Assembly: GCA_937928595.1 (NCBI GenBank)
Contig: CALGJV010000011.1
Span: forward strand, 1 to 64,000
DNA from: an uncultured Phycisphaerae bacterium
Lineage (GTDB): Bacteria > Planctomycetota > Phycisphaerae > UBA1845 > Fen-1342
Reading direction: 5' to 3'
Length of the DNA: 64,000 bases
Made by a program: the position numbers and the translations under genes
Notes under the pieces: model-generated
The model's input: only the letters and a program-made list of their open reading frames with translations
What the model was told of the DNA's origin: nothing
The model's database searches: none
Part shown: one piece after another, positions 46,112 through 46,600 of the stretch
Position numbering within the stretch: the stretch's first letter is position 1
Layout of the letters: each line of letters begins with the position of its first letter

Positions 46112-46114
46112 GAA

Positions 46115-46149
46115 AGAGCGAATCACGAAGAGTGAGGAGCGAGTTGAAC
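46115..46149 (+). repeat. Heptamer array left of the four-helix-bundle gene
   Basis: Five units in exact 7-base register: AGAGCGA ATCACGA, AGAGTGA GGAGCGA, GTTGAAC. It starts four bases after the atpG stop and is in the opposite orientation to the array at 46556-46590. Confidence 0.7.
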
Positions 46150-46170
46150 TCCACGCCGAGTCGCCCCGAC

Positions 46171-46533
46171 ATGTCGAAAGCCACCGCGCCGGACATCCGG
46201 TCGCGCAGTTACGCGTTCGCGTTGCGCGTCGTGCGCCTGGTGCGGGCCTTGCCGGCCGACCCCGCGACGCAGGTGCTGGCCCGGCAGTTGATCCGGGCCG
46301 GCACAAGCGTGGGCGCCAACGTGGAGGAAGCGCAGGGGTCGCATTCTCGCCGGGAGTTCGCGCGGCGGATGAACATCGCGCGGAGCGAAGCCCGCGAGAC
46401 CCACTATTGGCTGCGGCTGCTGGCGGATTCGGAGACACTTCCGCGTCGCCGCCTGGAGAGAATCGTGGACGAAGCCGACCAGCTCGTGCGCGTGCTGGTT
46501 GGGATCGTGAAGAAGACCCGCGAGTCGCTGTAG
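46171..46533 (+). CDS. Four-helix-bundle protein (S23 / 23S rRNA intervening-sequence type)
   Basis: This 120-residue protein has the family signature: helix 1 [16 protein letters not shown], then [18 protein letters not shown] (residues about 39-56) and the third-helix [14 protein letters not shown], the features of the TIGR02436 group. It has no role in ATP synthesis yet lies between atpG and atpD, where normally there is only a short gap. Both sides carry heptamer arrays in inverted orientation, giving a cassette of about 480 bases. Family knowledge: S23-type proteins are found in intervening sequences of 23S rRNA genes and as free genes, some near diversity-generating retroelements (Avd); function unknown. 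ATG at 46171; a longer GTG start at 46132 would put heptamer sequence in the protein. Confidence 0.88.
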
Positions 46534-46555
46534 CCGGGTGCGCGAGCCATCGGTC

Positions 46556-46590
46556 ACTCGCTACTCGCTATTCGCTACTCGCTACTTTGC
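46556..46590 (-). repeat. Heptamer array right of the four-helix-bundle gene
   Basis: Five units in exact 7-base register: ACTCGCT ACTCGCT, ATTCGCT ACTCGCT, ACTTTGC. It ends ten bases before the atpD ATG and thus occupies the atpD ribosome-binding region; no clear Shine-Dalgarno sequence is left there. Confidence 0.75.
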
Positions 46591-46600
46591 CGGGTGCAAC

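What the first reader, a model, noticed from the sequence alone, without database searches (positions are those of the whole stretch)
46112..46595. Four-helix-bundle gene in inverted heptamer arrays wedged into the ATP synthase operon
Between atpG and atpD lies a roughly 480-bp cassette: heptamers in GAGCGA orientation, an S23-family gene, heptamers in TCGCTAC orientation. The inward arrangement is the same as at 12.3/16.7 kb. The array abuts atpD and replaces its ribosome-binding region. The combination looks like a small mobile or domesticated unit built from an S23 protein and phased heptamers.
Basis: partly seen in the sequence, partly recalled or inferred. Interest (0 to 1): 0.75.

Follow-up and report, generated by a model that had tools for sequence, protein, structure and literature searches.

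The report
Mirror-repeat-bounded S23 gene inside ATP-synthase operon
A small gene of unknown function sits between two ATP-synthase genes, framed by mirror-image runs of a seven-letter DNA word; the same framing surrounds this gene family across many bacterial phyla, pointing to a widespread, apparently undescribed kind of genetic element.

Summary
Between atpG and atpD lies an S23 (PF05635, four-helix-bundle) ORF framed by inverted heptamer arrays. The window's 5' array is degenerate; the 3' array is clean.

It is not a fresh insertion. An orthologous S23 occupies the atp operon across at least three families of the order. Nearly every such copy has inverted heptamer arms with its own unit, and 5' and 3' arms match each other far better than arms from other species.

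Inverted arrays of 7-8-nt units frame most S23 genes sampled across about 20 phyla (45/79 by a strict cut; 0/416 control positions). They also frame a second, unrelated gene family, GxxExxY (23/25), but not ParE control genes (0/23).

Closest known: the 23S rRNA intervening sequences (stem plus S23 ORF, with heptamers in Coxiella). This looks like the protein-coding-operon version.

Best mechanism: an element in sense inside an operon transcript, whose arms can pair around the ORF, with the pentameric S23 protein recognising the repeated units. Architecture and co-evolution are shown; protein binding, processing and mobility are inferred. RNA pairing as the selected trait is only weakly supported: no general G-U excess, a modest one at atp.

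The parts
45227..46111 (+). atpG (ATP synthase gamma), upstream host gene
   Evidence: ORF reading and tblastn to relatives
46112..46144 (+). 5' arm: degenerate purine-rich heptamer array, inverted relative to the 3' arm
   Evidence: inverted-repeat search, 28 nt 79% complementary; pairs with the 3' arm in the predicted RNA fold
46171..46533 (+). S23 / 23S rRNA-intervening-sequence protein ORF, 120 aa, four-helix bundle family
   Evidence: PF05635 81 bits; TIGR02436; solved relatives 2rld E=4e-23 and 2gsc E=0.03, five chains each
46556..46586 (+). 3' arm: heptamer array ACTCGCT x4.4 (pyrimidine-rich)
   Evidence: Tandem Repeats Finder, pattern scan
46587..46600 (+). 14-nt spacer left between 3' arm and atpD start
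   Evidence: sequence
46601..48070 (+). atpD (ATP synthase beta), downstream host gene
   Evidence: 489 aa, 73-89% identical to relatives

Best explanation
The cassette is an intervening-sequence-like S23 element living in a protein operon instead of in 23S rRNA. Its anatomy is: arm of 4-5 tandem 7-nt units, S23 ORF, reverse-complementary arm. Shown here: it is an old resident of the ATP synthase operon, mostly vertically inherited with repeated losses; its protein is under purifying selection; its two arms change sequence quickly between species but stay complementary to each other; and the same architecture (7- or 8-nt units) surrounds S23 genes in many phyla. Inferred: the element is transcribed in sense as part of the operon mRNA. 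The arms can fold into a 28-35 bp stem around the S23 ORF, which would allow RNase III-type processing or a translational break between atpG and atpD. The S23 pentamer recognises the repeated units, plausibly one unit per subunit since arms carry about 4.5 units whether the unit is 7 or 8 nt. This recognition maintains, regulates or formerly moved the element. One arm may be renewed from the other by template switching, which would explain private units with matched order.
For: Arms: at 31 atp-operon elements, matched 5'/3' arms score 673.5 in sum against at most 438.5 in 100,000 mispairings, and the own partner is best or tied in 26/31 (18-locus version p<=5e-5). Old and syntenic: S23 in the atpG-atpD gap in families f1, f7 and f8; one clade; Mantel with AtpD r=0.47 p=0.0001. 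Purifying selection: dN/dS 0.03-0.14 in close pairs. Empty and filled gaps within one genus: G016 508 bp with element, G026 about 37 nt without. General: 45/79 S23 loci from about 20 phyla have inverted flank arrays scoring >=15, 0/416 control positions; in relatives S23 25/30, PDDEXK_3 23/25, ParE 0/23. Sense orientation: 51 of 60 S23 loci lie co-directional with both neighbours, 5 antisense. Fold: perfect long stem around the ORF in G059 (z -6.3); window arms pair (z -2.6). Arms go with the protein: similarity of arm units follows protein similarity even between phyla (r=0.11, p=0.0004). Unit number: median 4.4 (7-mers) and 4.6 (8-mers); known S23 structures have five chains. Precedent: the Coxiella IVS has a 28-bp inverted-repeat stem, an S23 ORF in the loop, tandem heptamers and RNase III excision (PMC4990558).
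Against: No general excess of G-U over A-C mismatches in the arms (125:141 over 119 S23 loci), so RNA pairing as the selected property is not shown; at atp elements alone it is 24:10 (95% CI of the G-U share 0.52-0.89). The window's own arms are among the weakest (79% complementary; own partner only rank 3). No binding, processing or mobility data. The cross-phylum arm/protein correlation is small and could partly reflect base composition. The unit-count argument for a pentamer is only suggestive.
Confidence: 0.5

Rival explanations
1. DNA-level foldback-like mobile element: the arrays are terminal inverted repeats recognised by S23 (and in sister elements by the GxxExxY nuclease-fold protein), moved with a host enzyme; the atp copies are immobilised descendants.
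For: Inverted ends made of tandem short units; two unrelated genes in the same frame; arms without gene at the atp site (G018, G019, G002) resemble internally deleted copies; no G-U excess overall; private arms for each of 8 S23 copies in one Flavobacterium genome; occasional plasmid copies (29 of 72,556 records).
Against: No recent identical copies and no target-site duplication seen; S23 has no known catalytic site; strong sense-orientation bias (51 versus 5) is unexpected for blind DNA insertion; no phage copies.
Confidence: 0.25
2. Domesticated regulatory hairpin of the ATP synthase operon: selection keeps an inter-cistronic stem to set the gamma:beta subunit ratio, and the S23 protein is a regulator.
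For: Conserved position before atpD across families; purifying selection on S23; G-U excess only in the atp set; stable stems.
Against: Many relatives lack the element at this gap, down to 25-50 nt spacing; further copies sit between atpA and atpG or before atpA (G015, G036, G019); S23 ORFs are broken by in-frame stops or frameshifts in some relatives (G003, G007, G010); identical architecture elsewhere in unrelated operons.
Confidence: 0.2
3. Chance or local slippage: unrelated microsatellite-like arrays next to an ordinary orphan gene.
For: The genome has many one-armed heptamer and octamer arrays without S23.
Against: Inverted matching between flanks is absent at control positions and control genes and co-varies between arms.
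Confidence: 0.03

Closest known systems
23S rRNA intervening sequences (IVS) with S23p ORF, e.g. Coxiella burnetii (PMC4990558)
   Same: S23p ORF enclosed by about 28-bp inverted terminal repeats able to form a stem; tandem heptamers before the ORF; about 430-490 nt; decay of the ORF in some lineages
   Different: Located between protein genes of an operon, not in 23S rRNA; both arms built of tandem units with a private unit per copy; RNase III processing untested; protein here under strong purifying selection
Diversity-generating retroelement protein Avd (related four-helix-bundle family)
   Same: Detectable by profile for some S23 relatives; pentameric four-helix bundle (recalled)
   Different: Far below the Avd equivalog cut-off (23.7 versus 80 bits for a relative, no hit for the window protein)
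Foldback (FB) transposons of eukaryotes (recalled, not tested)
   Same: Terminal inverted repeats composed of short tandem sub-repeats
   Different: Eukaryotic, kilobase-size, different genes; mobility not shown here
Cyanobacterial STRR heptanucleotide repeats (recalled)
   Same: Intergenic tandem 7-nt arrays, like the one-armed arrays of this genome
   Different: Not described, as far as found, as inverted pairs framing an S23 gene

Membership tests
S23 / 23S_rRNA_IVP protein family (PF05635, TIGR02436) | Profile score over curated cut-off | tested here: met
   81 versus 33.8 bits; 98.4 versus 24 bits
23S rRNA IVS | Lies inside 23S rRNA (helix 25 or 45) | tested here: not met
   Lies between atpG and atpD
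23S rRNA IVS | Complementary termini able to form a stem around the ORF | tested here: met
23S rRNA IVS | S23p ORF in the loop (in ORF-bearing IVS) | tested here: met
23S rRNA IVS | Excision by RNase III | not testable with these tools
   needs transcripts
DGR Avd | Avd equivalog score | tested here: not met
   no hit for the window protein; 23.7 versus 80 bits for a clade-A relative
DGR Avd | Adjacent reverse transcriptase and template/variable repeats | not tested
   immediate neighbours are atp genes; no search for a reverse transcriptase was run
Insertion sequence or MITE | Target-site duplication | tested here: inconclusive
   filled and empty gaps within a genus too diverged; a 9-nt direct repeat flanks only the 3' arm
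Insertion sequence or MITE | Transposase in the element | tested here: not met
   only S23 encoded in the gap
Foldback-type element | Inverted ends made of tandem sub-repeats | tested here: met
Foldback-type element | Mobility | not testable with these tools
   no recent copies found
Known Rfam RNA family | Covariance-model match over gathering score | tested here: not met
   only one hit with E<=1 in 45900-46800, far below its gathering score and inside atpG

The most novel reading that the evidence does not exclude
A pan-bacterial class of small elements in which a repeat-recognising protein (S23 pentamer, or in a sister type the GxxExxY PD-(D/E)XK-fold protein) is framed by inverted 7-10-nt arrays unique to each copy, with arms renewed from one another. 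The rRNA intervening sequences would be a special case that entered rRNA, and the many one-armed intergenic arrays would be the relics.
Probability: 0.4. Interest if true: 0.9.

Novelty: new variant of a known kind. Interest (0 to 1): 0.72.

Why it matters
S23 'four helix bundle' proteins are widespread, structurally solved, and of unknown function. Tying them to cognate inverted arrays gives each protein a predicted nucleic-acid target that can be tested in vitro at once. It extends the rRNA intervening sequence to ordinary operons, brings in a second orphan gene family with the same frame, and offers a source for the many short intergenic arrays in such genomes. The presence in the ATP synthase operon raises a concrete question of how an essential operon tolerates or uses it.

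Tried and rejected
Recent insertion at atp: rejected by synteny, clade and Mantel results.

The 12.3/16.7 kb sites as a larger inward-flanked cassette: rejected, different arrays and ordinary genes.

Solo heptamers as half of distant hairpins: no partner clearly above shuffles within 1.4 kb, one marginal exception, L025.

RNA selection through G-U wobble: no excess over all S23 loci; the atp subset became weakly positive only after the set was enlarged from 18 to 31.

Known RNA family: none. Phage carriage: none. Plasmids: rare.

Target-site duplication from filled/empty pairs in the atp gap and at a Flavobacterium site: too diverged.

Literature: nothing found in the open library on inverted arrays around S23 outside rRNA; subscription journals were not searchable.

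Full report
What is there. Between the atpG stop (46111) and the atpD start (46601) lie 489 nt holding an S23/IVP protein ORF of 120 aa (46171-46533), preceded by a degenerate heptamer array (46117-46144) and followed by a clean array of 4.4 heptamers (46556-46586) in the opposite orientation. The pattern is well above chance in the window (11 hits versus 1.8 expected) and in the genome (23 versus 0 reversed). Fourteen nt separate the array from the atpD start, so the claim that the array abuts atpD and replaces its ribosome-binding region is only partly right.

Own genome. Only three PF05635 genes were found. Each is framed by inverted arrays, but each by its own unit: heptamer here, an AGAGATCG-type octamer at L001, a CACAAAGTGA-type unit at L002. 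Most of the roughly 18 heptamer sites have no S23 and no inverted partner; they are one-armed intergenic arrays, often purine-rich shortly behind a stop codon.

The atp operon in relatives. S23 occurs in the atpG-atpD gap of many genomes of the family and of two other families in the order. In a scan of 397 genomes of the class, the 23 best-scoring per-genome hits to the window's S23 all lie in the atp operon (22 before atpD, one before atpA); the next seven do not. A lower-ranked hit in G041 (52% identity) lies on another contig, so the clade may not be strictly confined to atp. The atp copies form one side of a well-supported branch (SH-aLRT 96); one further S23 between atpA and atpG in G036 belongs to another subfamily, with a very long branch. 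Divergence of the atp S23 correlates with AtpD divergence (r=0.47, p=0.0001, n=22). Close pairs show dN/dS 0.03-0.14, although some copies are broken by stops or frameshifts (G003, G007, G010). Absence is common too: gaps of 25-110 nt in several relatives, including a genus with both states (G016 filled, G026 empty). Some gaps keep arms without the gene (G019, G018; in G002 arms of a different type).

Arms co-vary. In nearly every atp copy the two arms match, but the unit differs between genomes: for example AGTTTCGAGGTGCGAGTGCAGAGTGTCGAGTTGAA against AGTTTCGAGTTTCGAGTGCAGAGTGTCGAGTTGAA in G020, and an identical 31 nt in G059. Scoring every 5' arm against every 3' arm, true partners total 673.5; the best of 100,000 random pairings is 438.5. 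The window itself is one of the weaker cases, its 5' arm being degenerate.

A general property of S23. In 79 S23 loci from about 20 phyla, including Methanophagales archaea, the best inverted match between 300-bp flanks has median 15.5, and 45 reach 15; 416 control positions with the same spacing have median 9 and none reach 15. Periods are mostly 7 (126 arms) or 8 (38 arms), with median copy number 4.4 and 4.6. In the relatives' genomes the same test gives 25/30 for S23 and 0/23 for ParE genes, but 23/25 for the unrelated PDDEXK_3/GxxExxY family. S23 loci lie in sense between co-directional genes in 51 of 60 clear cases. Similarity of arm units follows similarity of the proteins, weakly but significantly, even between phyla. 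In Flavobacterium one S23 element is shared by some 40 of 150 congeners at one intergenic site, spanning from the stop codon of one gene to the start codon of the next, while others have short gaps or different inverted sequences there.

Mechanism. The predicted RNA of the G059 element closes with a long perfect stem around the ORF (z -6.3) and the window element pairs its arms (z -2.6). This is the anatomy of the ORF-bearing 23S rRNA intervening sequence: Coxiella has a 28-bp stem, an S23p ORF in the loop, tandem heptamers before the ORF, and RNase III excision (PMC4990558). That paper also cites an older proposal that the IVS was mobile with its ORF needed for mobility. The mismatch test does not favour RNA pairing in general (G-U 125, A-C 141) but does at atp (24 against 10). 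I therefore hold the RNA-level model as most likely but leave a DNA-level, foldback-like model as a serious rival. Solved S23 relatives have five chains in the entry, which suggests one unit per subunit; this is inference.

Membership. It is a member of the S23 protein family. It is not a 23S rRNA IVS, because it is not in rRNA, though it is like one in anatomy. It is not an Avd or DGR component by profile score, and it is not a known transposon by any tested feature.

Noticed in passing
L216-L239 (PF13366 loci in relatives): GxxExxY (PDDEXK_3) genes are framed by inverted arrays such as ACCACAGAGGCACAGAGG or CCGCCAAGACGCCAAGG in 23 of 25 loci; one such cassette (G034) lies in front of atpA.
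   Followed up: partly
window 12250-12400 and 16480-16760; L006-L026: Many one-armed purine-rich arrays (7-mer GTAGCGA, 8-mers GAGAGATC, AGGGATTG, GGCACGAA) follow stop codons, often with a pyrimidine-rich array of another unit further on.
   Followed up: partly
window 46533-46541 and 46589-46597: The 9-mer GCCGGGTGC flanks the 3' array as a direct repeat, and the S23 start (ACATGTCGAAAGCCAC) resembles the atpD start (ACATGTCGGAAATCAC).
   Followed up: no
L329, L333, L336, L339: The same Flavobacterium intergenic site that holds S23 elements in some species holds CCTCTCCAAAGGAGAGGG-type inverted sequences without a gene in others.
   Followed up: no
L093, L094, L096: Second S23 cassettes within the atp operon: between atpA and atpG (G015, G036) and before atpA (G019); the G036 copy belongs to a different S23 subfamily.
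   Followed up: partly
L001, L031, L033, L045, L047, L052: Long open frames antisense to S23 genes score in the S23 profile built here; probably a reading-frame artefact.
   Followed up: no
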